From contig NZ_FOAP01000009.1 of the NCBI RefSeq assembly GCF_900109545.1, positions 62,001-126,000 on the forward strand: 64,000 bases of DNA, written 5' to 3'. Position numbers and translations under genes: made by a program. Source of the stretch: Stigmatella aurantiaca (GTDB taxonomy: Bacteria > Myxococcota > Myxococcia > Myxococcales > Myxococcaceae). Positions within the stretch are counted from its first letter, which is position 1; each line of letters starts with the position of its first letter. The notes below the pieces were generated by a model. It did no database searches. It saw only the letters and a list, made by a program, of their open reading frames with translations, and had not been told where the DNA came from. Shown piece after piece: positions 29,701 to 41,829 of this stretch.

Positions 29701-29836
29701 GCCGGGCCGGTGTCACCGGGCCGGCCCGGGAGGGGTACACGGGTGGACACATCCACCGCCCTCCGGGCGGGTCCCCCCCCGCGCCACTGGAAAGCGCTTG
29801 GGCAGGAGGCAAGTATCTCTGGGAGGGAGGTTCGCG

Positions 29837-30262
29837 ATGGACACGAAGACGAAGGCCGCCGGAGAGGGCCGTGCCGTGGTGCTCTTCGACGGGGTCTGCA
29901 ACCTCTGCAACAGCACCGTCAATTTCATCATCGACCGGGACCCCAGCGCCCACTTCCGCTTCGCCGCCCTGCAGTCCCCCCAGGCCGCGGAGCTGCTGGC
30001 CCCCCTGGGCCGCGTACCCCAGGGCGAGCCCCAGAGCATCTTCCTGCTCGAGGACGGGAAGCTCTACGAGCGGTCCACGGCGGCGCTGAAGATTGCCCGG
30101 CGCATGGGCGGGGCCTGGAAGGGGCTCTATGCCTTCATCGTGGTGCCGGCGCCAGTGCGCGATGCCGTCTACCGCTTCATCGCGAGCCACCGGTACCGCT
30201 GGTTCGGCAAGTCGGACGCCTGCCGCATGCCCACCCCGGAGCTGCGGGAGCGGTTTCTCTAG
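29837..30262 (+). CDS. DCC family (DUF393) thiol-disulfide oxidoreductase-like protein
   Basis: 141 residues. The N-terminus has VVLFDGVCNLCNSTVNF, the D-G-x-C-x-x-C motif of the DCC family, and YRWFGKSDACRMPTPELRERF closes it. A strong GGGAGGG precedes the ATG at 29837. Members look thioredoxin-like, but their substrates are mostly unknown. It is convergent with the acyl-AMP ligase gene, whose stop is 7 bp away. Confidence 0.88.
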   Translation: MDTKTKAAGEGRAVVLFDGVCNLCNSTVNFIIDRDPSAHFRFAALQSPQAAELLAPLGRVPQGEPQSIFLLEDGKLYERSTAALKIARRMGGAWKGLYAFIVVPAPVRDAVYRFIASHRYRWFGKSDACRMPTPELRERFL

Positions 30263-30268
30263 CTCCCG

Positions 30269-31870
30269 TCAGTTCACGCGGCGCTCCCGCCCCTTCCAGT
30301 ACGGCTCGCGCAGCACGCCCTTGAGCAGCTTGCCGGCGGCGTTGCGCGGGAGCCCCTCGGTGAACTCCACGGACTTGGGGACCTTGAACTCCGCCAGGGC
30401 CCCGCGGGTGTGGCGCAGGATGTCCCCGGCCCGCAGCGTGGAGCCGGGCTGCTTCACCACCAGCGCCTTGACGGCCTCGCCCCACAGCTCGTCCGGCACC
30501 CCGATGACGGCCACGTCCGCCACCTCGGGGTGGCTGCGGATGACGTTTTCGATCTCCGCCGGGTAGATGTTCTCCCCCGCGGAGATGATCATGTCCTTCA
30601 CCCGGTCGCAGATGTAGACGAATCCCTCCGCATCCACGTACCCGGCGTCTCCGGTCATCACCCACTCGCCCACGAGCGTCTTCTGGGTCTCCTCCGGCTG
30701 GTGCCAGTAGCCGGCCATCCGCGCAGGGGAGTTCAGGCAGATCTGCCCGATGGTTCCCGGGGGCACCTCGTGCCCCTGCTCGTCCAGGACGCGCACCTGC
30801 ACCCCGGGAAAGGGGCGGCCCGCGGCGCGCAGCCGGGAGGCCGGGGCGTTCTGGTGGTCCTCGGGCCGCAGACAGACGGCGCAGTTGCCCGTCTCGGTCA
30901 TGCCGTAGATCTGCGCGAAGTCGCAGCCCAGCAGGCGCCGCCCCTTCTCCAGCAGTGCCGTGGAGATGGGCGCGCCCCCGTACACGACGGCCTTCAGGGA
31001 CGACAGGTCCGCCTGGTGGATGCCCGGCTCGCCCAGGAGGATCTGCATCATCGCGGGCACCATGCACGTGTGGGTGACCCGGTAGCGGGCAAGGCTGGAG
31101 AGAATCGTGGCGGGCTCGAAGCTCCGCAGGACGACTTGCGTGCTGCCCAGGGCGAGCCCCCGCACCAGCCACCACAGGCCTCCGATGTGGAAGGTGGGCA
31201 CGAAGAGCATGCTGACGCTGGCCTCCGTCCAGCCAATCCAGCACTCGCCGTGGGCCTCCAGCGCGTGGGAGATGGCCAGGAAGCTGCGGTGGGGCAGCAG
31301 CACCCCCTTGGGCCTGCCCGTGGTGCCGCTGGTGTAGAGCTGCACCACGACCTCCTCCGGGTCATAGGCCATGTCCAGGGGCGTGGGGGCCGCCCCTTCG
31401 CACCAGTGGGCGAACGCTCCCGGGGCGCTCAGGGGCGCGCCCACCCGGACCACGGGCAGCGGGCCTCGCATCTTCTCGAACACCCGCGGCACCAGGGCCG
31501 CGGACTCCTCGTCCACGAAGAGCAGCTGGGCCCCCGAATCCTCGAGGATGTAGGCCAGCTCCTCCGGGGCGAGCCGCCAGTTCAGGCCCACGTAGACGGC
31601 GCGGGCCTTGGCCACCCCGAACAGCAGCACGAGCGAGTCGAGCGACTCCCTTCCGAGCACCGCCACCCGCGCTCCCGGGTGGATGCCCTCCCGGCGCAGG
31701 GCATGCGCCGCCTGGTTGGAGCGGCGCTCCAGCGCGTCGTAGCTCAAGGGCTCGTCCCTCACGATGAGGGCGGCCTTCGGCCCCAGGCGCTGGCTGCGGA
31801 GGGCCGGCAGTGTGGCGAGCGTGGTGACTTCGCGAATCCCGCTCATGGCGTTCATCTCCTGGCCGCTCAT
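30269..31870 (-). CDS. Acyl-AMP ligase (FadD10/ScoC-like) of the isonitrile-PKS operon
   Basis: 533 residues of the ANL superfamily. The P-loop reads YTSGTTGRPKGVLLPH, the adenine motif YGMTETG, the hinge GDAGYVDAEGFVYICDRVKD, and the C-terminal catalytic Lys lies in NAAGKLLKG. Its ATG overlaps the PKS stop in an ATGA, so translation is coupled. In isonitrile lipopeptide clusters the homologous enzyme (ScoC, FadD10) activates fatty acids and loads them on a free ACP. The free ACP, FcoT and TauD-like genes in the same operon make that role likely here. Sequence alone cannot separate ACP loading from CoA ligation. Confidence 0.88.
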   Translation of the reverse strand: MSGQEMNAMSGIREVTTLATLPALRSQRLGPKAALIVRDEPLSYDALERRSNQAAHALRREGIHPGARVAVLGRESLDSLVLLFGVAKARAVYVGLNWRLAPEELAYILEDSGAQLLFVDEESAALVPRVFEKMRGPLPVVRVGAPLSAPGAFAHWCEGAAPTPLDMAYDPEEVVVQLYTSGTTGRPKGVLLPHRSFLAISHALEAHGECWIGWTEASVSMLFVPTFHIGGLWWLVRGLALGSTQVVLRSFEPATILSSLARYRVTHTCMVPAMMQILLGEPGIHQADLSSLKAVVYGGAPISTALLEKGRRLLGCDFAQIYGMTETGNCAVCLRPEDHQNAPASRLRAAGRPFPGVQVRVLDEQGHEVPPGTIGQICLNSPARMAGYWHQPEETQKTLVGEWVMTGDAGYVDAEGFVYICDRVKDMIISAGENIYPAEIENVIRSHPEVADVAVIGVPDELWGEAVKALVVKQPGSTLRAGDILRHTRGALAEFKVPKSVEFTEGLPRNAAGKLLKGVLREPYWKGRERRVN

Positions 31871-34800
31871 CCCGTGGCCTTCGTGGGCCCCACGTCCGCC
31901 CGCCCGTAGCCCAGCACCTCGTCGTGCAGGTGCTGGGTGAGGGCGTCCAGGGTGGGGAAGTCGAACAGCAGCGCTGCGGGCAGGGAGCAGCCGAGGGTGA
32001 TCTCCAGGTGGTTTTTCAGCTCGACGGACGAGAGCGAGTCGATGCCCAGCTCCACCAGCCGGTGGTGGGGATCGATCTTCTCAGGCGAGGAGAAGCCCAG
32101 CATGCGTGCCAGCAGGCCACGCGAGAAGCCCAGCAGCAGCTCCCGGCGCTGGAGGGGAGATGCCTCGCGCAGCCGGGCCCGGAAGAGTTCGGGGGGCTCG
32201 GCGGGGGTGGTGCTCTTCCCACGTGCGGCGCCGGTCATCAGGGACTCGACGAGCTTCAGGGGCGTGCCCAGGCGCACCTGGCGGATGAACCGCTCCCAGT
32301 CGATGGCCGCCACGCCCGCCTGGGGCAGGTCCCCGCGCAGCAGGAGGCCCAGGGCCGCCAGCGCCAGCGGGGTGGGCAGCGTGTGGATGCCACGCGCCGC
32401 GGCCTGCTTGCGCTGCTGCGGATCCAGGGTGGCCGCCATGCCCACCGAGGCCCAGGAGCCCCAGTTGATGCTCAGGCCCGGCAGGCCCTGGGCCCTGCGC
32501 TGGTGCATGAGCGCATCCATGAAGGCGTTGGCCGCCGCGTAGTTGGCTTGGCCCAGCGAGCCGAGCGCGGAGGACATGGAGGAGAAGCAGACGAAGAAGT
32601 CCAGGGGCAGGTCCTTCGTCACGAGGTGCAGGTTCCACGTCCCCTGCACCTTGGGCTTCATCACCTTCCGGAAGCGCTCCTCGGTCAGCTCCTGCAGGGT
32701 TCCGTCATCCAGCAGTCCCGCGGCGTGGATGACGCCCGCGAGCGGGGCGAAGCCCGCGGTGCGGAGGTGCTCCATCACCTGGGTGAGGTGCGCCAGCTCG
32801 GTGACATCCGCCTGGAGCACCTCCACGCGTACCCCCGTGGCGCGCAGGCGCTCCAGGAGGGCCTGGGCCTCGGCGCCCGGGCCCCGGCGGCCCAGCAGGA
32901 GCAGCGAGCGCGCGCCCTGCCTCACGAGCCACTGTGTGACTTCCAGACCGAGCGCGCCCAGTCCGCCCGTGAGCAGGTAGGTGCCCTCGGGGCGAATCAC
33001 CGGCCGTTCGTCCGCCGCCTCCCGGCGCGGCAGCTCGATGACGACCTTGCCGATGTTCTTCGCCTGCGAGAGGTGCCGGAACGCGGTCTGCACATTGCTC
33101 AGCGGGTAGCGCTCGACGGGCAGGGGCTCCACGCTCCCCAGGGCCATCCACCCAAGCACCTCGGCCAGCGACTTCCTCAGCCCACTGCGGACCTCGGCGG
33201 AGGCCTCGCTCAGGTCGAACGCGTGGTAGGTGATGTCCGGCCGCACGGCGGCGACCTGCTCGGGCGACCAGATGCCCAGCTTGCCAATCTCGATGAAGCG
33301 CCCCCCCTGGGCGAGGACCTTCAGGTTCGCGGGGATGAAGTCACCGTTGAGCGAGTTGAGCACCACGTCGACGCCGCGCCCTCCGGTGGCTTCCAGCACC
33401 TGCTCCTGGAAGTGCAGCGAGCGCGAGTTCATGACGTGGCGCACGCCCTGGGCCTGGAGGAAGGACCACTTGGGAGGACTGGCGGTGGCCAGCACCTCGG
33501 CGCCCAGGCGCTGGCAGAGCCGCAGCGCCGCCTGGCCCACGCCCCCCGCCGCCGCGTGGATCAGCACCCGGTCTCCCGGGCGGATTCGCGCCAGCGAGAT
33601 GAGCGAGTGCCACGCGGTCATGAACACCGAGGGCGCCGCCGAGGCGTCCAGGAAGCTCAGCCCTTCCGGCATCGGGATGAGATCCTCGACGGGAAGCGTG
33701 ACGTGGCTGGCCAGGCACGCGTCGCCGATGGCCACCACGCGCTCGCCGACACGCGATGCCGGGACGCCCGGGCCCACGCGGGTGATGGTGCCCGCGCACT
33801 CCAGGCCCAGCGTCCGCGAGCCGTCGGGTTTCTTCAGCATGGCCAGGGCGAAGAGCACGTCCTTGAAGTTGAGGGCGGAGGCGCGCACCTCCACCTCGGC
33901 CTCTCCGGGCCCGGGCGGGCGGCGCTCCACCGGGGCTTGGCTCAGGCGCTCCAGGGCCCCGGAGGGATCCAGGGTCAACTGGAAGGACGGGGCCTGGGAG
34001 GGCTCGCCAGAAGGCAGCGCGTCCTTCATCCGCTCCCAGCGGGCGATGAACCGCAGGCCCCGCCGGAAGGCGACCTGCTCCTCGGCCTCGTGGGCGAGCA
34101 CCTCTTGCGTGAGCTGCCGCACCTCCAGCTCCGGCGGAGCGCGCCGGGCGCCGGGCTCCAGATCCATGTGGAGGCAGCGGAAGGCGGGGCGCTCCATCCG
34201 GAACGTGTTGAACAGGCCCAGCAGGGCGGACTGCTCGACGTGGACGGGGGCGGGGCGCTCACCGGGCGAGAAGGCGCCCCGGGTGACGAGGTGCACCGTC
34301 AGCTCCCGGAACGGGCCCAGGGCCTGGATGAGGCGCAGCAGGGGGCCGCAGCCGAGCGCTTGCGCGGACTCCAACGCCTGGGCGGGCTCGGGGGTGGCCC
34401 CCACGAGATCCAATCCCCAGAAGTAGAGCACCCCGGGCGGGTCGCGGCGTGCCGCGCTGGGGGCGGCCGGGGCGCACACCGCTTCCATCAAGGCGGTGAA
34501 GTGCTCGGGATGGGCGGGGTCCAGATGGTAGTGCCCGCCGTCCTGGCGCAGCGCCTGGCTGCCCGGAGCGGGATGCACGAGGATGCACGAGGCCTGGGCC
34601 TCTTCCAGGGCGCGCGCCACCGCGAGCCCCACGCCCGATTGGTCCGCGAAGATGAGCCACCGGTTCGGGGCGGTGGAGGCGTTGGAGACGGCGGCGCCTC
34701 CCGTCCCGAGGGCCCGCTGGGGCCACAGGAAGGAATAGAGGAACTCCGCCGGGTCGCCTTCGAGGATGCGCCGCAGGGAGGCTTCATGGGTTTGCAGCAC

Positions 34801-37800
34801 CTGCAAGCCCATGACGAGCGCGATGCGCTGGCCGGTGCCGTCCAGCAGGTGGACATCGGCCCGGGCGACCCGGGAGTCCTCGCCCTCGGAGGGACGCCGG
34901 ACGATATAGGCCTGGCAGCGGCCCTCGGGCTTCTTCCACCAGTGCAGTGCCTCGATGCCCGTGGGCAGGTAGGTGGTGTTGCCGTCGAGGAAGGCGAGCG
35001 CCATCGCCTGGAAGGCCGAGTCCAGGAGCGCGGGGTGCAGGCAATACGGGGCGCTCGCGTCGCGGAGGGCCTCGGTCAGCTCCACGCGGCCGAGCACCTG
35101 CCCGTCACGGGCCCGGAGTTCCTTCAGCCCCTGGAAGGTGGGCCCATAGGCCAGCCCGCGCTGGCGCATGCGCTCATAGAACGCCTGGGGCTCCAGACCC
35201 GGGGGCAGCTCCTGCGAGAAGGACTCGGGGAGCGGCGGCACCGGGGCGTCCAGCGGCTCCCCGGCGATCAGTCCCTGCACGTGGAGCTTCCAGGGGACCG
35301 AGTCGCCTTCGCTCTCGGCGCTCTGGCTGGTGATCTGAAACGCGAACCCGCCGGAGGTGTGCGGCTTGAGGGTGGTGCGGACGCGCGTCTTCGTGTCCGC
35401 GGACAAGGCCAGGGCGGCGCGGATGGCCACGTTCTTCACGGTGGGCCGGGCGTTCGGCAGGGCAATCGTCCCCGCGGCGAGGGCCAGCTCCAGGAAGCCC
35501 GCGGCCGGCACGAGGGCGTGGCCAAACACCCGGTGATCCGTGAGGTAGCCGGGGTGGGCCTCATCCAGCTCGGCCTCGAAGACATAGGCCTCATCCCGGG
35601 AGCTTCGGGCCGCCACGCGGCGCCCGAGCAGCGGGTGAACGGGGGCCGTCGAGGGCTGCGCGCCCGGTTGCGCGACGGCGTAGGCCGGGAACCAGTAGTG
35701 CTCCCGCTGGAAGGGATAGGTGGGCAGCACGTCCAGCTTGCGCCCGGGGTAATCCCGGTCCACCGCCACCCAGTCCACGGGGGCTCCCGCGGTGTACAGC
35801 CCGCCCAGGCTGGCCAGGAGCTGCTCCCAGTCGCGCGGCACCGCGGTGAGGCTGGGCAACCACTTCAGCTCGGGATCCGAAAGGCCGTGGCGGCCCAGGG
35901 CCACCAGCGTGGGCCGGGGGCCGATCTCCAGGAAGTGGCGGCAACCCAGGCGGTGCATCGCTTCGAGGCCAGCGTGGAAGCGCACCGGCTCGCTCACGTG
36001 GCGGACCCAATAGTCCGCCTGGGCCACCTCCTCCGAGAGCGAGGTGCCGGTGAGGTTGGAGATGAACTCCAGCTTCGGCGGGGCGTAGTGCACCCGCTGG
36101 GCCACCTGGGCAAAGGCCTCCAGCATCGGCCGCATCAGGGGCGAGTGGAAGGCGTGGGAGACCTCCAGCGCCTTCGGGGCGGGGCCGTTCTGGGCGAACG
36201 CCGCAGCCAGCGCCTGCAGCCGCTGCCGGGAGCCCGAGAGAATCACCTGCCGGGGACCGTTGACGGCGGCCAGGGAGACCTCGTCCGGGAAGGGGGCGAT
36301 GAGCTGCCGGACGGTCTCCTCATCGGCCGCGAAGGCCATCATGGCCCCGCCTTCCGGGAGGGCGCCCATCAACCGGCCCCGCGCCGCGACGAGCTTCAGC
36401 CCATCCTCCAGGCTGAAGACACCGGCGACACACGCCGCGACATACTCGCCCAGGCTGTGGCCCATCACGGCCGCGGGCTGCACGCCCCAGGACTGCCATA
36501 GCATGGCCAGCGCGTACTCGAGCGCGAAGAGCAAGGGCTGCGCGTACTCCGTCCGGTGGATCCGCGCGGCCTCGGCCTCCGGGCCATACAGCACCTCCTT
36601 CAAAGACCAGCCCACCTCGGCGGCGAGGAGGGCGTCGCACGCGTCCATGGTCTTCTGGAAAGTGGGTTGGGTGGCGTACAGCTCTCGCCCCATGCCCAGG
36701 AGCTGGGAGCCCTGGCCGGTGAAGAGGAAGCCCACGCTGGGGGGACGGTTGCGCACCAGCCCCCGCGAGCTTCCAGGCGGCGTCTGGCCCTGGCGCGCGG
36801 CCTTCAGCCGCGCGAGCAGCTCCTGCGGCGAGCCCGCCTGAAGGGCCAACCGGTGCGAGAAGTGCGAGCGCCCCGCGTTCGCCGAATGGCACACGTCCGC
36901 CAGCGGCAGCTCCGGGTGCTTCTCCAGCAGCGCCACATAGGCTTCCACCAGCGCCTCCAGCGCGCCTTCGGTCTTCGCCGAGAGCGCGAGCAGGTGCCGG
37001 GGCCGCTCCACCGGCTGGGAAGACGGCTCCTGCCGGGGCGGCTCCTCCACCACCAGGTGCGAGTTGGTCCCGCTGAAGCCGAAGGAGCTGACGCCGGCCA
37101 CGCGCTTGCGCTCGGACGCCGGCCACGGCGTGAGGCGCGTGGGCACCCGGAAGGGCAGCTTGTTCCAGGGGATGCGGGAGCTGGGCTTCTGCAGGTGCAG
37201 GTTTGGCGCGATGGCGCCGTGGTTGAGCTGCAGGATGACCTTGATGAGCCCGCCGATGCCGGCCGCGGACTCCATGTGCCCGATGTTCGTCTTGGCCGAG
37301 CCCACCCACAGCGGCCGGTCCGCGCCGTGGTTGCCGGCGAAGACTTCGCCCAGGGCGTTCATCTCGATGGGGTCTCCCAGGGCGGTCCCGGTGCCGTGCG
37401 CCTCGATGTAGTCCACGGCGGAGGGCTCCAGGCCGGCGTTCTCCAGGGCCTTGCGGATGACCTGGCGCTGGGCGGGCCCGCTGGGCGCGGTCAGCCCGCC
37501 GCTCGGCCCGTCCTGGTTGACGGCGCTGCCGCGGATGACCGCGAGGATGGGGTCCTTGTCCCGCTTCGCGTCGGCCAGGCGCTTGAGGACGACCATGCCC
37601 ACGCCCTCGCTGCGCACGTACCCATTGGCGGAATCATCGAAGGTCTTGCAGCGGCCCTCGGGCGAGAGCATGTGCGCACGCGACAGCAGCACGTGGCCCA
37701 GTGGCGCGAGCATGAGGTTGACGCCGCCGGCCAGCGCCGCGTCCGTCTCCCGCCGCCGCAAGCTCTCACAGGCCAGGTGCACGGCGACGAGCGCGGACGA

Positions 37801-38436
37801 GCACGCCGTGTCGAGCGTCATGCTGGGGCCATGCAGGCCCAGCACATAGGACAGCCGCCCCGAGGCGGGGCTGTGGGCGCTGCCCGTGCTGGCGGTGGGG
37901 TCGGCCTCCTCTTCCGGCACGCACTGGGCCATGAGCGCCGCGTAGTCCGTGCAGGTGAGCCCCACGTAGACGCCCGTCTCGCTGCCGTACAGCGAGCTGG
38001 GCGGAATGCAGGCCCGCTCCAGCGCCTCCCACGCCACTTCCAGAATCAGCCGCTGCTGCGGGTCCATGTACATGGCCTCGCGCGGCGAGATGCGGAAGAA
38101 CTGCGCGTCGAAGACCGTGTGCCCGCTCATGAAGCCACCCTCGCGGGTGCAGATCTTCCCGGGCGCGTCGGGATCCGGATCATAGTACTTGTCCGAATCC
38201 CAGCGGTCCCCGGGGATGGGGGAGATGGCGTCGCGGCCGGACTCCAGCAGCGCCCAGAACTCCTCCGGCGTCTGGATGCCTCCGGGCAAGCGGCACGCCA
38301 TGCCCACCACGGCGATGGGCTCGCCGTTCGCCGTCTTCGCGGCCTCCGCCGCCTCCAGTTTGAGGCGCATGGCCTTGAGGGCGAGGAGCGCCTCGTTGAG
38401 CAGTTTGGGATAGTTGGGCGGGGAGGGGGGGGGCAT
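31867..38436 (-). CDS. Type I polyketide synthase, one fully reducing module (KS-AT-DH-ER-KR-ACP)
   Basis: 2189 residues. KS (about 38-460) has DTACSSA with Cys212, EAHGTG and the GHMESAAG His. AT (about 565-880) has GHSLGEY, and HAFH near 762, the malonyl-CoA signature. DH (about 935-1200) keeps the HxxxGxxxxP motif in DHRVFGHALVP and LLDSAFQ. A region of about 300 residues with no clear motif precedes the ER (about 1500-1800; IHAAAGGVGQAAL). KR (about 1820-2010) has TGGLGALGLE, an LDD motif (B-type) and the Ser/Tyr/Asn triad. The ACP carries LGIDSLSS near 2133. There is no thioesterase, reductase or methyltransferase. A short N-terminal helix could dock to the free ACP encoded just upstream. 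One round would add a saturated C2 unit; iterative use is possible. Confidence 0.95.
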   Translation of the reverse strand: MPPPSPPNYPKLLNEALLALKAMRLKLEAAEAAKTANGEPIAVVGMACRLPGGIQTPEEFWALLESGRDAISPIPGDRWDSDKYYDPDPDAPGKICTREGGFMSGHTVFDAQFFRISPREAMYMDPQQRLILEVAWEALERACIPPSSLYGSETGVYVGLTCTDYAALMAQCVPEEEADPTASTGSAHSPASGRLSYVLGLHGPSMTLDTACSSALVAVHLACESLRRRETDAALAGGVNLMLAPLGHVLLSRAHMLSPEGRCKTFDDSANGYVRSEGVGMVVLKRLADAKRDKDPILAVIRGSAVNQDGPSGGLTAPSGPAQRQVIRKALENAGLEPSAVDYIEAHGTGTALGDPIEMNALGEVFAGNHGADRPLWVGSAKTNIGHMESAAGIGGLIKVILQLNHGAIAPNLHLQKPSSRIPWNKLPFRVPTRLTPWPASERKRVAGVSSFGFSGTNSHLVVEEPPRQEPSSQPVERPRHLLALSAKTEGALEALVEAYVALLEKHPELPLADVCHSANAGRSHFSHRLALQAGSPQELLARLKAARQGQTPPGSSRGLVRNRPPSVGFLFTGQGSQLLGMGRELYATQPTFQKTMDACDALLAAEVGWSLKEVLYGPEAEAARIHRTEYAQPLLFALEYALAMLWQSWGVQPAAVMGHSLGEYVAACVAGVFSLEDGLKLVAARGRLMGALPEGGAMMAFAADEETVRQLIAPFPDEVSLAAVNGPRQVILSGSRQRLQALAAAFAQNGPAPKALEVSHAFHSPLMRPMLEAFAQVAQRVHYAPPKLEFISNLTGTSLSEEVAQADYWVRHVSEPVRFHAGLEAMHRLGCRHFLEIGPRPTLVALGRHGLSDPELKWLPSLTAVPRDWEQLLASLGGLYTAGAPVDWVAVDRDYPGRKLDVLPTYPFQREHYWFPAYAVAQPGAQPSTAPVHPLLGRRVAARSSRDEAYVFEAELDEAHPGYLTDHRVFGHALVPAAGFLELALAAGTIALPNARPTVKNVAIRAALALSADTKTRVRTTLKPHTSGGFAFQITSQSAESEGDSVPWKLHVQGLIAGEPLDAPVPPLPESFSQELPPGLEPQAFYERMRQRGLAYGPTFQGLKELRARDGQVLGRVELTEALRDASAPYCLHPALLDSAFQAMALAFLDGNTTYLPTGIEALHWWKKPEGRCQAYIVRRPSEGEDSRVARADVHLLDGTGQRIALVMGLQVLQTHEASLRRILEGDPAEFLYSFLWPQRALGTGGAAVSNASTAPNRWLIFADQSGVGLAVARALEEAQASCILVHPAPGSQALRQDGGHYHLDPAHPEHFTALMEAVCAPAAPSAARRDPPGVLYFWGLDLVGATPEPAQALESAQALGCGPLLRLIQALGPFRELTVHLVTRGAFSPGERPAPVHVEQSALLGLFNTFRMERPAFRCLHMDLEPGARRAPPELEVRQLTQEVLAHEAEEQVAFRRGLRFIARWERMKDALPSGEPSQAPSFQLTLDPSGALERLSQAPVERRPPGPGEAEVEVRASALNFKDVLFALAMLKKPDGSRTLGLECAGTITRVGPGVPASRVGERVVAIGDACLASHVTLPVEDLIPMPEGLSFLDASAAPSVFMTAWHSLISLARIRPGDRVLIHAAAGGVGQAALRLCQRLGAEVLATASPPKWSFLQAQGVRHVMNSRSLHFQEQVLEATGGRGVDVVLNSLNGDFIPANLKVLAQGGRFIEIGKLGIWSPEQVAAVRPDITYHAFDLSEASAEVRSGLRKSLAEVLGWMALGSVEPLPVERYPLSNVQTAFRHLSQAKNIGKVVIELPRREAADERPVIRPEGTYLLTGGLGALGLEVTQWLVRQGARSLLLLGRRGPGAEAQALLERLRATGVRVEVLQADVTELAHLTQVMEHLRTAGFAPLAGVIHAAGLLDDGTLQELTEERFRKVMKPKVQGTWNLHLVTKDLPLDFFVCFSSMSSALGSLGQANYAAANAFMDALMHQRRAQGLPGLSINWGSWASVGMAATLDPQQRKQAAARGIHTLPTPLALAALGLLLRGDLPQAGVAAIDWERFIRQVRLGTPLKLVESLMTGAARGKSTTPAEPPELFRARLREASPLQRRELLLGFSRGLLARMLGFSSPEKIDPHHRLVELGIDSLSSVELKNHLEITLGCSLPAALLFDFPTLDALTQHLHDEVLGYGRADVGPTKATG

Positions 38437-38451
38437 GGCCGGTTCTCGGGA

Positions 38452-38907
38452 TTAAGGGTTTTTCAGCGCCTGCAGCTCCGCCGCGAGCAGCTCCGCGAGC
38501 TGCTCCTCGGACAGGGCTGGCTCTTCGCCGGCGGGGGGAGGGGGAGGGTGGGGCGCCGCGGGCGGGGGCGCCGCGGGCCCAGGGGCCTTGAGCCGCGCGG
38601 CTTCCAGCAGGAAGCCCGTCAGGGCCTCCAGGTTGGGCTGATCAAAGGCGAGGGAGCTGTTGAGCTCCAGCTCCAGCTCCTGCTCCAGCAGGCCCTTGAG
38701 TTCGACGGCCTTGAGCGAGTCCACGCCCAGCTCCATGAGGTTGTCGCGCGGGCCAATCTCCGCGGGCTCCATGCCCAGCCGGGGACCGAGCTGCTCCTGG
38801 AGGAAGTCCATGAGCAGCCGGGCCCGGCGCTGGGGGGAGGCGGCCCGCAGCGAGGCAATGAGACGTTCCTTGCCTGCCCCGGGGGGCAGGCCTTGTGGGT
38901 GTGTCAC
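38452..38907 (-). CDS. Stand-alone acyl carrier protein (ScoB-like position)
   Basis: 151 residues from a GTG at 38907, chosen because AAGGAGA lies five bases before it and the preceding gene ends 31 bp upstream. The carrier domain has LMELGVDSLKAVELKG with the phosphopantetheine Ser. The N-terminal half is a helical extension, and a Pro/Ala-rich linker leads to an acidic helix at the C-terminus (LSEEQLAELLAAELQAL) that resembles a docking helix. The PKS starts 15 bp downstream with its own N-terminal helix. This gene corresponds by order to Rv0100/ScoB, the carrier on which the isonitrile acyl chain is built. Confidence 0.88.
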   Translation of the reverse strand: MTHPQGLPPGAGKERLIASLRAASPQRRARLLMDFLQEQLGPRLGMEPAEIGPRDNLMELGVDSLKAVELKGLLEQELELELNSSLAFDQPNLEALTGFLLEAARLKAPGPAAPPPAAPHPPPPPAGEEPALSEEQLAELLAAELQALKNP

Positions 38908-38938
38908 GGGATTCTCCTTGAAGGGGAACGGCGGGCGC

Positions 38939-39514
38939 TCAGGCCCCGGGGGAAGCGGCGGGCGGGGCGTCGGACTCACCCGTGATGGCAATCAGCGGCT
39001 CGCCTTCGCTCATGCCCCCGTGGTCATCCTCGAAGCGGCAGTACGTCTTGAGGAACATGGACTTGCCCCGGCTCATCACCTTGCTGATCTCCACCCGCCC
39101 GGTGAAGTGCGCGGACTTCATCTGCCGGCGGAACGAGCTGGAGAACTGGACGATGAGGAAGTCCGAGAGCTGCCGGCGGCGGTACTCCTCGATGCTCCAG
39201 GAGGCCAGGGGCTCCAGCTGGCGGTGCGCGCAGGTGGCCAGCAGGTAGTAGGCGAGCTGGTTGTAACAAATGTTGAATTCAACGGCGTTGAAGTGCCCCG
39301 TGTCCGCGATGTAGCAGGACTCCGGAATGGAGAACTCTCCCACGGCCGCTGCCCGGACGGCCCGGGAGCGGCTCTCCGGCGGCAGCACGCCTTCGTGCTC
39401 CAGGTGCGCGCGCAGCAGGTAGCGGCAGTGTGTTTTGTAGGGGATCAGCACCTGCTGGAGCAGGGCCGGATCTTCCACGATGAGGGGGGAGGCCTTGGGC
39501 TCGATGGCGCTCAT
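38939..39514 (-). CDS. FcoT-family thioesterase (ScoD-like, glycine adduct formation)
   Basis: 191 residues, the usual FcoT size (about 180). GHFNAVEFNICYNQLAYYLL is the conserved core of this hot-dog-fold family (Rv0098 type), and FSSSFRRQMKSAHFTG matches the second conserved strand region. In isonitrile lipopeptide pathways this protein adds glycine to an enoyl-ACP and releases a 3-(carboxymethylamino) fatty acid. The stop of the TauD-like gene lies 2 bp upstream, so the two are tightly coupled. This pairing is the strongest marker for the isonitrile pathway. Confidence 0.88.
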   Translation of the reverse strand: MSAIEPKASPLIVEDPALLQQVLIPYKTHCRYLLRAHLEHEGVLPPESRSRAVRAAAVGEFSIPESCYIADTGHFNAVEFNICYNQLAYYLLATCAHRQLEPLASWSIEEYRRRQLSDFLIVQFSSSFRRQMKSAHFTGRVEISKVMSRGKSMFLKTYCRFEDDHGGMSEGEPLIAITGESDAPPAASPGA

Positions 39515-39516
39515 GG

Positions 39517-40374
39517 TTAGCTCTTGTAGAAGGGCAGCTCGTCGTAGATGCCGATGCGGTAGCTCTTGCTCGGCTCCCCCAGCGGGTTGTCGGAGGCCTT
39601 GTGCAACAAGGCCCGGTTCTCCCAGAGCAGGACGTCACCGGGCTGGTAGGAATAACTCTGCACGTGGGCATCCTGCTCGATGAAGGCAAACAGTTTCGCC
39701 ATCAGCGCGCGGTTCTCCTCGTGAGACAATCCTTCGAGGCCCGTGGTGAAACCACTGCTCACATAGAGGCTCTTGCGGCCCGTCAGCGGGTGCTCGATGA
39801 CCGCCGGGTGGGTGATAGCGGGCACCTGCTTCTCCACCGCGGCGACGATGTCGACGAGCGCCTTGTCGATGTCCTCGGGCGTGATTTTGTAGCGCCACTT
39901 GCCCTCCTGGATGGCGCGGCGGCCCTCCACCAGGTTTCTCAGTTCGGCGGGCAGCGCCTCGTACACGCGCTGCATGTCGATGAAGTAGGTCTCCCGCTTC
40001 GCCTTGGGCAGGATCTGCGGATAGACCATGACGAGCGGCAGCGGCTCCTGGAAGAACTGGTAGTCCGTGTGCCAGTACCGGCCCGTTCCCGAGACGCCCA
40101 CCTTCTTGCCATCCTCGAGCACGTTGGAGGAGACGAAGAGCTCGGGGTACTTGGGGTGGTGGTAGTTCTGCTGAAAATAGACCTGGGGCCTGCCGATCTT
40201 CCGGGAGAACTCGATGTATTCCTCGGGCGAGGGGCTCTGCCCATGGAAGATGACGAGCTTGTGTTCGTAGACCGCCTGGCGGATGCGCTTGGCATCCTCG
40301 GCGGTCGTGGCCCGGAGATCCAATTGAGAGATCTCCGCGCCAATCTGACCCGGTGAGAGGGGTTGGATTTTCAT
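39517..40374 (-). CDS. TauD-like Fe(II)/2-oxoglutarate enzyme, probable isonitrile-forming decarboxylase (ScoE/Rv0097-like)
   Basis: 285 residues. The facial triad is visible as His102 and Asp104 in WHTDYQF and His258 in LLHKA; Arg273 in SYRIGIYD lies 15 residues after the second His, as needed for 2-oxoglutarate. Tyr105 follows the Asp directly, and Lys163 (KWRYKI) is placed where, from memory, ScoE uses a Lys to hold the substrate carboxylate. In ScoE-type enzymes two oxidation rounds turn the glycine-derived N-CH2-COOH group into an isonitrile. It is the first gene of the operon, 2 bp before the FcoT gene. A plain taurine-type dioxygenase is the alternative; gene context argues against it. 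Confidence 0.85.
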   Translation of the reverse strand: MKIQPLSPGQIGAEISQLDLRATTAEDAKRIRQAVYEHKLVIFHGQSPSPEEYIEFSRKIGRPQVYFQQNYHHPKYPELFVSSNVLEDGKKVGVSGTGRYWHTDYQFFQEPLPLVMVYPQILPKAKRETYFIDMQRVYEALPAELRNLVEGRRAIQEGKWRYKITPEDIDKALVDIVAAVEKQVPAITHPAVIEHPLTGRKSLYVSSGFTTGLEGLSHEENRALMAKLFAFIEQDAHVQSYSYQPGDVLLWENRALLHKASDNPLGEPSKSYRIGIYDELPFYKS

Positions 40375-40450
40375 GGGGCAAGCCTCGCGCGGGAGGCAAT
40401 GCCCCCCGGGAATGGTGTCTGTGTTGTGATTTGAGCACTGTGAGGGAGGG

Positions 40451-40497
40451 GTCTGACATGCTCGAAAAACCAGACAGGCGGCACAGGTCTGTCAGAC
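40451..40497. promoter_or_regulatory. Cluster of GTCTG/CAGAC half-sites in the divergent TauD-Rieske promoter
   Basis: The 145-bp gap between the divergent starts holds GTCTGAC at 40451-40457, CAGAC at 40471-40475, and a perfect palindrome GTCTG-T-CAGAC at 40487-40497. Four half-sites in 47 bp suggest a shared operator for the biosynthetic operon and the oxygenase. No regulator gene is adjacent. Confidence 0.5.
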
Positions 40498-40519
40498 GTC
40501 CGCGCTATGTCTTGATGAC

Positions 40520-41668
40520 ATGAGCAATCGAAACGGCTGGGAGAAGGATGTCGTCGAGCGGCTCGTGACCCTGGTGGAGACCCGCGCTCAGCCCCTGGCC
40601 GCGCGCATGGCGCCCATCCCGGTGGAGCACTACCGCTCGCGCGAACGATTGGAATTGGAGCGGCGCCACGTGTTCGAGCGCTTCCCCCTGGTGGCCGGTT
40701 TCAGCACCCAGGTCCGTGAGCCCGGGAGCTTCTTCACCCACGACGCCTCGGGTGTCCCCATCGTGGTGACGCGCGATACCTCGGGGGTCCTCCGGGCCTT
40801 CCTCAACGTGTGCAGGCACCGGGGCGCGAAGCTGGCCGGGGAGGCGTGTGGCTCGGGCCGCACCGTGCTCGCGTGCCGGTATCACGGCTGGCGCTACGGG
40901 CTGGATGGCAAGCTGCGCGCCGTGCCGGGCCTGAAGAGCTTCCCGGAGCTCAACCGGGAGGAGCGGGGGCTCGTGCCGCTTCCGGTGGCCGAGCGGCATG
41001 GCCTCGTCTTCGTCCGGCCCACGCCCGGGGAGCCGCTGGAGCTGGAGGCGTTCCTGGGGCCGGTGTTCGAGGAGCTGGAGTCGTATGGCTTCTCGCGCCG
41101 CGTGGTCTTCGAGTCCTCGGTGCGGACCGTGGCCTGCAACTGGAAGCTGATGGTGGAGACGGTGCTCGAGGCGTACCACATCTCGGTGTTGCACCGGAAA
41201 ACCGGGGGGCTCGCCTTCGAGGAGAACCTGGTGCTGTTCGATGAGTCCACGCCCCCCCACGGCCGCTTCGTGCTGCCGCTGCGAGGCCTCCAGCGGCCGG
41301 AGGAGGTGGCGCCGGGCAGCCTCCTTCAGTACGCGAGCCCGCTCTACTGGATGTTCCCCAACAGCGTGATTCTCTTCTCGGGCGCGTTCGCCCACTTCCT
41401 GTCGATGTTCCCCCTGGACGAGGGCCACTGCCGGGTCCAGGGCGCCTCGCTCCGGTTGGACGGCCCCCTCGATGCGCCGGCGCAGGCGGCGCTCCAGCAG
41501 GAGTACGGCCAGTACTGGGCCACCATCCTGGAGGACATCTCGGTCACCGAGAGCATCCAGGCGGGATTCGGTTCGGGCGCCAACCGGGAACTGCTCCTGG
41601 GAGGATTCGAGTCCGTGGCGGACACGCACTTCCACGCGGTGCTGGAGCGCCTGCTGCGCCAGGGGTGA
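40520..41668 (+). CDS. Rieske non-haem iron oxygenase alpha subunit
   Basis: 382 residues. The Rieske site is C98-x-H100 and C119-x-x-H122 (CRHRG ... CRYHGW). The mononuclear iron ligands are probably His220 and His225 in EAYHISVLH, and Asp339 in ILEDISV. The bridging acid before the first His is Glu217, as in choline- or carnitine-type monooxygenases, rather than the Asp of aromatic dioxygenases. No reductase or beta subunit is encoded nearby. The gene diverges from the isonitrile-PKS operon across a gap with shared half-sites, so it is a candidate tailoring enzyme. Its substrate is unknown. Confidence 0.88.
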   Translation: MSNRNGWEKDVVERLVTLVETRAQPLAARMAPIPVEHYRSRERLELERRHVFERFPLVAGFSTQVREPGSFFTHDASGVPIVVTRDTSGVLRAFLNVCRHRGAKLAGEACGSGRTVLACRYHGWRYGLDGKLRAVPGLKSFPELNREERGLVPLPVAERHGLVFVRPTPGEPLELEAFLGPVFEELESYGFSRRVVFESSVRTVACNWKLMVETVLEAYHISVLHRKTGGLAFEENLVLFDESTPPHGRFVLPLRGLQRPEEVAPGSLLQYASPLYWMFPNSVILFSGAFAHFLSMFPLDEGHCRVQGASLRLDGPLDAPAQAALQQEYGQYWATILEDISVTESIQAGFGSGANRELLLGGFESVADTHFHAVLERLLRQG

Positions 41669-41829
41669 TGACAACTGTTGTCACCCTGGTGACTGCGGTC
41701 ACCACCCCTCGTCGCCGGAGATGAAGGGCACTGAAGGTTCGAGGGGGAGATAAACTCCTGAAAACCGAGGGGCACGCACGTTTCTTGATTTCTGCGTACA
41801 TGGCACGGCCATCGCAGGAAGGGGCTTTC

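What the first reader, a model, noticed from the sequence alone, without database searches (positions are those of the whole stretch)
30269..41668. Isonitrile pathway genes joined to a fully reducing PKS instead of an NRPS
One operon holds TauD-like Fe/2OG enzyme, FcoT thioesterase, free ACP, KS-AT-DH-ER-KR-ACP PKS and acyl-AMP ligase. Apart from the PKS this is the exact ScoE-D-B-C (Rv0097-Rv0100) set that makes 3-isocyano fatty acids for isonitrile lipopeptides in actinobacteria, where an NRPS completes the product. Here the NRPS position is taken by a malonyl-specific, fully reducing PKS module. The inference is a polyketide-extended isonitrile lipid, possibly a metal-binding or antibiotic molecule, from a myxobacterium. 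I know of no described pathway with this build.
Basis: partly seen in the sequence, partly recalled or inferred. Interest (0 to 1): 0.93.

Follow-up and report, generated by a model that had tools for sequence, protein, structure and literature searches.

The report
Myxobacterial isonitrile–polyketide lipid gene island
This myxobacterium carries a six-gene island, missing from a same-genus relative, that is predicted to make a fatty acid with a reactive isonitrile group and to lengthen it on a polyketide synthase rather than a peptide synthetase; the product, likely a cousin of known isonitrile antibiotics, is untested.

Summary
An empty site in a same-genus genome bounds these six genes.

The oxygenase belongs to a sister clade of ScoE, below the curated cut-off (287 of 400 bits). 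ScoE's iron and substrate-binding residues are kept, but His299, which ScoE needs, is absent in 57 of 57 clade rows.

At 41 related loci FcoT is always present; 30 have NRPS-type genes and 11 a PKS, so PKS versions are a minority, not unique. Docking-type sequences on the ACP and PKS, and an ACP-PKS fusion in a relative, make ACP-to-PKS hand-over likely. This predicts a 5-isocyano fatty acid that the Rieske enzyme may oxidise.

"No described pathway" does not hold: amycomicin is an isonitrile antibiotic whose cluster a held paper places among type I PKS clusters, and I recall a 2024 paper with this logic. No metal-transport gene lies in the island, so an antibiotic is likelier than a metallophore. 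New variant of a known kind; no chemistry is shown.

The parts
39517..40374 (-). ScoE-like Fe(II)/2-oxoglutarate oxygenase, predicted isonitrile-forming
   Evidence: PF02668 165 bits; ScoE chain 232 bits versus 106 for taurine dioxygenase; residue table
38939..39514 (-). FcoT protein, predicted glycine-adding thioesterase
   Evidence: PF10862 173 bits; 5wsx/5wsy 118 bits, Rv0098 84 bits; NF049938 148 bits, below cut-off 250
38452..38907 (-). Free acyl carrier protein with Pro-rich linker and C-terminal docking-type tail
   Evidence: PF00550 53.5 bits; GVDS site; start read; tail compared
38455..38517 (-). C-terminal tail of the ACP (ALSEEQLAELLAAELQALKNP), docking type
   Evidence: likeness to other junctions judged by eye
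31867..38436 (-). Type I PKS, KS-AT-DH-ER-KR-ACP, no thioesterase and no C-terminal docking tail
30269..31870 (-). AMP-forming acyl ligase
   Evidence: PF00501 284 bits; NF004837 552 bits, over cut-off 476
40520..41668 (+). Rieske oxygenase, predicted tailoring enzyme
   Evidence: PF00355 and PF00848; inside the present/absent unit; 97% and 81% identical copies in G097 and G096
40375..40519 (.). Shared divergent promoter region with inverted TCTGACA/TGTCAGA pair kept in 3 of 3 genomes
   Evidence: function not tested
30264..41773 (.). Stretch without DNA similarity to the empty site in G095, that is, the island
   Evidence: BLASTN; flank matches

Best explanation
A six-gene island carries a ScoE-like oxygenase, an FcoT protein, a free ACP, a ligase, a fully reducing PKS module and a Rieske oxygenase, and it would likely make a 3-isocyano fatty acyl unit, lengthen it by one reduced two-carbon step to a predicted 5-isocyano fatty acid, and possibly oxidise that. 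Proposed order, all inferred from family chemistry: the ligase loads an unsaturated fatty acid on the free ACP; FcoT adds glycine to the beta-carbon and cuts the N-carboxymethyl-3-amino acid free; the Fe/2OG oxygenase turns the glycine nitrogen into an isonitrile; the ligase reloads the isocyano acid on the ACP; the ACP docks to the PKS, which adds malonyl and reduces it fully. The PKS has no thioesterase and no onward docking tail, so it is likely the last module; release is unassigned (FcoT or a thioesterase elsewhere). The Rieske enzyme would take the tailoring role that P450s are reported to have in amycomicin. Shown: gene content, motifs, island boundaries, conserved residues, docking-type sequences, and the ACP-PKS fusion in a relative. 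Not shown: any chemistry, chain length, product or activity.
For: Oxygenase nearest to ScoE among solved structures with the ScoE iron and substrate contacts kept. FcoT at 41 of 41 related loci. Six genes, no others, form the present/absent unit. ACP tail and PKS N-terminus resemble other PKS subunit junctions of this genome; the Hyalangium ACP, whose set lacks a PKS, has no tail; planctomycete PKSs carry the ACP in front; relative P0250 has the ACP fused to the PKS. The same ACP position feeds NRPSs in the commoner clusters. Amycomicin gives a precedent (the rest recalled).
Against: His299, needed by ScoE (PMC7949033), is Asp here and not His in any of 57 clade rows. Both curated isonitrile models are missed, while Streptomyces controls pass. 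ACP-to-PKS docking shows hand-over but not that the isonitrile is already there. No enzyme in the island makes the needed enoyl group, and none is an obvious release enzyme for the PKS. The Aquimarina Rieske neighbour is weak support: the 120 best-listed Rieske relatives all score 234 bits or more against its 240.
Confidence: 0.55

Rival explanations
1. The PKS acts first: the ligase and free ACP supply a starter, the PKS lengthens it, and FcoT then adds glycine and releases the chain for isonitrile formation, giving a 3-isocyano acid as end product.
For: In cremimycin a PKS without thioesterase makes 2-nonenoyl and CmiS1 adds glycine and releases it (PMC11284099, passages). The window PKS also lacks a thioesterase. 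Docking of ACP to PKS fits a starter hand-over too.
Against: The PKS has an ER with its NADPH motif, so its product should be saturated and unfit for glycine addition. The oxygenase-FcoT-ACP-ligase set stands without a PKS in Hyalangium, and the PKS takes the place of the NRPS in the commoner clusters.
Confidence: 0.15
2. The oxygenase removes the glycine carbons oxidatively and leaves a 3-amino acyl starter, so the product is an amino or lactam polyketide with no isonitrile.
For: His299 is missing and the curated ScoE cut-off is missed. FcoT-type chemistry leads to beta-amino starters in cremimycin.
Against: The residues that hold both carboxylates and the amine of the ScoE substrate are kept. 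The cremimycin step uses an FAD enzyme, and no such gene is among the six.
Confidence: 0.12
3. The island only makes a precursor that an NRPS elsewhere in the genome takes up, giving an ordinary isonitrile lipopeptide.
For: The genome has 57 condensation-domain matches (the listing was cut, and the listed rows show none on the window's contig). Planctomycete relatives place an NRPS after the PKS.
Against: The PKS C-terminus lacks the docking-type tail of the planctomycete PKSs. The only condensation-motif match in the window lies on the strand opposite the ligase gene.
Confidence: 0.06
4. The clade is not an isonitrile maker at all: an unknown Fe/2OG reaction on an FcoT product.
For: No member of this clade was found among solved structures, and I saw no report of a characterised one in the papers listed.
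Against: Residue conservation and the constant FcoT partner.
Confidence: 0.1

Closest known systems
Aerocyanidin and amycomicin pathways (Zheng, Clardy and Liu 2024, not held, content recalled; PMC13273461 passages seen)
   Same: Isonitrile from a bifunctional thioesterase and an Fe/2OG enzyme, ligase and ACP, then PKS extension (recalled); amycomicin cluster lies in a type I PKS network
   Different: P450s are reported as the oxidants of amycomicin; here a Rieske oxygenase and no P450 among the six genes. Their sequences could not be reached for comparison
Isonitrile lipopeptide clusters (sco, Rv0096-Rv0101 type; Streptomyces plasmid examples L094, L095)
   Same: Oxygenase, FcoT, ligase and carrier protein
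   Different: NRPS completes the product and metal-transport genes lie near; neither holds here. Oxygenase 39% identical and below the ScoE cut-off
Planctomycetota ACP-PKS-NRPS isonitrile-type loci (L017, L027, L037, L039)
   Same: Fully reducing PKS with the ACP in front, next to oxygenase and FcoT
   Different: PKS followed by an NRPS; KS from a different clade
Symploca and Okeania loci (L043/L088, L014/L087)
   Same: Oxygenase, FcoT and ligase with PKS and no NRPS seen
   Different: Multimodular PKS on the opposite strand; Symploca contig ends inside the cluster
Cremimycin 3-aminononanoate pathway (PMC11284099, passages)
   Same: FcoT-type glycine addition beside a PKS without thioesterase
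   Different: FAD enzyme instead of Fe/2OG oxygenase; PKS acts upstream

Membership tests
ScoE-type isonitrile-forming oxygenase | Fe-binding His, Asp, His | tested here: met
   H102, D104, H258 kept in 57 of 57 clade rows
ScoE-type isonitrile-forming oxygenase | Substrate contacts Tyr96, Lys193, Arg310 and nearby Tyr101 | tested here: met
   Y66, K163, R273, Y71 kept; Tyr97 is Phe67
ScoE-type isonitrile-forming oxygenase | Mobile 2OG site Arg157 and His299 | tested here: not met
   Arg kept (R127), His299 is Asp262; 0 of 57 clade rows have His
ScoE-type isonitrile-forming oxygenase | NCBIfam NF049937 cut-off of 400 bits | tested here: not met
   287 bits; control 521
ScoE-type isonitrile-forming oxygenase | Isonitrile formed in vitro | not testable with these tools
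   Bench assay needed
ScoD (glycine-adding FcoT) | NCBIfam NF049938 cut-off of 250 bits | tested here: not met
   148 bits; controls 293 for Streptomyces and 219 for Halotia; Pfam FcoT is met
Isonitrile lipopeptide cluster | NRPS next to the set | tested here: not met
   No NRPS in the window; island of six genes
Isonitrile metallophore | Metal-transport genes in the cluster | tested here: not met
   None among the six genes; present near L094, L095, L096; rest of the genome not searched
PKS-extended isonitrile acid pathway (definition recalled) | Thioesterase, Fe/2OG enzyme, ligase, ACP and PKS together | tested here: met
   gene content only
PKS-extended isonitrile acid pathway (definition recalled) | P450 oxidants as in amycomicin | tested here: not met
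   No P450 among the six genes; Rieske instead
PKS-extended isonitrile acid pathway (definition recalled) | Common descent with aerocyanidin or amycomicin proteins | not tested
   Those sequences were not reached
Cremimycin-type beta-amino starter pathway | FAD-dependent CmiS2-type enzyme | tested here: not met
   None among the six island genes

The most novel reading that the evidence does not exclude
A ScoE sister clade spread over at least five phyla makes isonitriles without His299, holding 2-oxoglutarate in a different way, and this myxobacterial island uses it with one PKS module and a Rieske oxygenase to make the first myxobacterial isonitrile antibiotic: a 5-isocyano lipid oxidised by Rieske rather than P450 chemistry.
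Probability: 0.3. Interest if true: 0.75.

Novelty: new variant of a known kind. Interest (0 to 1): 0.55.

Why it matters
If right, it adds an uncharacterised family of isonitrile-forming oxygenases outside Actinobacteria and suggests that PKS extension of isonitrile acids arose more than once: myxobacterial and planctomycete KS domains fall in different clades. An 11.4-kb self-contained island is small enough for heterologous expression. The missing His299 gives a direct test of how ScoE-type enzymes bind 2-oxoglutarate. A Rieske oxygenase acting on an isonitrile lipid would be a new tailoring step to look for.

Tried and rejected
Considered and rejected: taurine or sulfonate catabolism (106 bits against 232 for ScoE); an unrelated PKS with chance neighbours (synteny, empty site); a common origin of the myxobacterial and planctomycete isonitrile PKSs (KS tree: the planctomycete clade, 98/95, leaves out the window type; the window type's own group, 94/94, is below the starred threshold; no constraint test was run).

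Led nowhere: searches for isonitrile with myxobacteria or Stigmatella gave no relevant cluster (listings; passages of PMC13311259). A class-wide search from a Pseudomonas centre, meant to reach Chromobacterium, had hits in 1 of 369 genomes, the centre itself. Aerocyanidin occurs in 2 held papers (listing); one was read in passages, the other not. The Aquimarina Rieske match looked telling until one search showed how common that score is.

Corrected: the first TauD tree used a wrong-frame outgroup; one search replaced it, but its outgroups are still too distant to root the clade. Both used the quick method. My first attempt to file this report was badly formed and was returned once for checking.
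Full report
WHAT IS THERE. Five minus-strand genes run almost without gaps: oxygenase 39517-40374, FcoT 38939-39514, ACP about 38452-38907, PKS 31867-38436, ligase 30269-31870. Pfam gives TauD, FcoT, PP-binding, the KS-AT-DH-ER-KR-ACP set and AMP-binding. The PKS domains carry their expected motifs, and the AT has HAFH (motif meanings recalled). A sixth gene, 40520-41668 (+), 145 bp upstream of the oxygenase, encodes a Rieske oxygenase.

THE UNIT HAS SHARP EDGES. Of 195 genomes searched in the phylum, 5 including this one have an oxygenase match at E <= 1e-40. Three of the other four are in the same genus. G096's contig length of 10,260,756 equals that given for a Stigmatella aurantiaca protein, P0128, so the genus is that of S. 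aurantiaca (now listed as Allostigmatella). G096 and G097 have all six genes in the same order with the same neighbours. In G095, same genus, the matches to the two flanking genes (89% and 86% identical) lie about 0.8 kb apart, against about 12.1 kb here. DNA similarity stops at window 30263 and resumes at 41774. The unit is therefore the operon plus the Rieske gene. Whether G095 lost it or the others gained it is open. G095 has only a 35% identical Rieske protein elsewhere. The divergent promoter keeps an inverted TCTGACA/TGTCAGA pair in 3 of 3 genomes.

IS IT ISONITRILE CHEMISTRY? For: the oxygenase matches ScoE and chain 6l86 at 232-240 bits, taurine dioxygenase at 106. PMC7949033 (passages) gives substrate contacts Tyr96, Lys193 and Arg310, a water network with Tyr97 and Tyr101, and a mobile 2OG site of Arg157 and His299. 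In 57 rows of the window's clade, the window and its same-genus orthologues included, the iron triad and the R157, K193 and R310 equivalents are kept in 57 of 57, and Y96 and Y101 in 56 of 56 with one fragment; Y97 is Phe in 37, Pro in 13, Leu in 6. Against: the His299 position is Asp here and His in 0 of 57, while it is His in the 3 solved chains compared (6dch, 6l86, 9p9p) and in two Streptomyces plasmid enzymes, and Tyr in a Halotia one. PMC7949033 reports that H299Q removed activity. The curated ScoE and ScoD models give 287 and 148 bits, below 400 and 250. Seven relatives scanned give 265-302 bits for ScoE. Controls: Streptomyces 521 and 293; Halotia 437 and 219. So this is a sister clade whose activity is inferred. 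The ligase scores as a general long-chain acyl-CoA ligase (552 bits, cut-off 476), and FadD10 is not among its nearest solved relatives (196 bits against 295 for the best).

THE COMPANY IT KEEPS. A scan of genome contigs gave 41 loci in Cyanobacteriota, Planctomycetota, Bacteroidota, Pseudomonadota and one myxobacterium. A scripted count (six-frame ORFs, phmmer with window domains, condensation motif HHxxxDG) gives FcoT in 41 of 41, a stand-alone ligase in 29, NRPS-type ORFs in 30, PKS ORFs (KS plus AT) in 11, both in 5, neither in 5. Of the five with neither, L010 and L036 reach contig ends, L022 is the four-gene Hyalangium set, and L032 and L048 are Pseudomonas. Of the six with PKS and no motif, L016 and L021 reach contig ends, L035 has an adenylation-type ORF cut at the locus end, and L014, L028 and L043 showed no condensation motif when more was read; the L043 contig ends inside a third PKS. 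The oxygenase-FcoT pair is the constant, the NRPS the usual partner, the PKS an alternative. The count depends on the peptide patterns used and is not a census. In a more distant myxobacterium, G093, the oxygenase (48% identical) and FcoT stand without the other partners in the 30 kb read.

WHICH WAY DOES THE CHAIN FLOW? In the three Stigmatella-type sets the ACP ends in a Pro-rich linker and a tail (ALSEEQLAELLAAELQAL in the window), and the PKS starts with a helix-like stretch (NYPKLLNEALLALKAMRLKLEAAE in the window). Similar tails and starts meet at other PKS junctions in this genome (L058, L062, L063, L064). A fifth junction, L074, has a tail of this kind but a different start. Likeness was judged by eye. 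The Hyalangium ACP, whose set lacks a PKS, has no tail. In P0250, 66% identical to the PKS, an ACP most like the free ACP is fused before the KS. Planctomycete PKSs also have the ACP in front, and five complete ones end in docking-type tails. The window PKS has no such tail. I read this as ACP to PKS, with the PKS last. That the isonitrile is already in place is inferred from the ACP's role in the NRPS clusters and in the four-gene set, and from the ER, which should give a saturated chain that FcoT cannot use. The cremimycin order (PMC11284099, passages) is the main rival.

RELATIVES ON METAGENOME CONTIGS. The protein listings give contig length 15975 for TauD P0008 (80%), PKS P0248 (67%) and Rieske P0131 (65%); 69340 for TauD P0009 (78%) and PKS P0250 (66%); 117842 for TauD P0024 (64%) and a two-module PKS P0298. 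That equal lengths mean one contig is inferred. One search listed 120 of 543 hits, and searches scored capped candidate sets.

ORIGIN OF THE PKS. In a KS tree of 45 rows, seven planctomycete KSs and one Aquimarina KS form a clade (98/95) without the Stigmatella type, whose neighbours are a Symploca isonitrile-locus KS, an own-genome KS and a second Aquimarina KS (94/94, not starred). Separate recruitment is likely, not proven.

WHAT IS KNOWN. PMC13273461 (passages) places the amycomicin cluster in a type I PKS network and says its pathway forms isonitrile, epoxy and keto groups with AmcQ, AmcB and P450s, citing Zheng, Clardy and Liu 2024. That paper is not held. I recall that it describes a bifunctional thioesterase, an Fe/2OG enzyme, ligase loading on an ACP, PKS extension and later oxidation, and that aerocyanidin has its isonitrile at C5; none of this was checked. 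So the build is, as far as I can tell, not new. The Rieske enzyme in place of P450s, the myxobacterial host, the minimal island and the clade without His299 are the differences. I found no isonitrile cluster reported for Stigmatella or myxobacteria, which cover open-licence papers only.

METAL OR ANTIBIOTIC? Two Streptomyces plasmid clusters have a heavy-metal P-type ATPase, a copper chaperone and an ABC transporter beside the NRPS set, and a Halotia plasmid cluster has TonB receptors nearby. The six island genes include no transporter. A metallophore is therefore less likely than a toxic or signalling lipid, though transporters elsewhere in the genome were not searched for.

Noticed in passing
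L032 7772-11035; L048 8321-11470: Two Pseudomonas loci pair FcoT with the ScoE-like oxygenase, a second TauD protein (identified by Pfam in L032) and an FMN-binding protein, with no ligase, NRPS or PKS found within about 10 kb.
   Followed up: partly
L029 11564-17602 and similar Methylobacter, Methylomonas and Bacteroidota loci: Single proteins with carrier domains, a KS of divergent type, condensation, adenylation and thioesterase domains next to the oxygenase-FcoT pair; only L029 was scanned with Pfam.
   Followed up: partly
L023 2410-4275; L024 8350-10207: Methylomonas loci carry two ScoE-like oxygenases in tandem.
   Followed up: no
L088 4601-19939; L087 9342-19998: Symploca and Okeania have multimodular PKSs beside the oxygenase, FcoT and ligase, with no condensation motif in the stretch read.
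   Followed up: partly
L089 12912-19998 with L028: An Aquimarina locus follows the PKS with a Rieske oxygenase, a KS-DH protein, an ACP-aminotransferase fusion and an FAD-binding protein.
   Followed up: partly
L094, L095: Two Streptomyces linear plasmids carry isonitrile NRPS-type clusters with a stand-alone KASIII gene and copper genes.
   Followed up: no
   Followed up: partly
window 29812-30263 (+): A small gene at the left edge of the island is shared with the empty site (85% DNA identity), so it lies outside the island.
   Followed up: no
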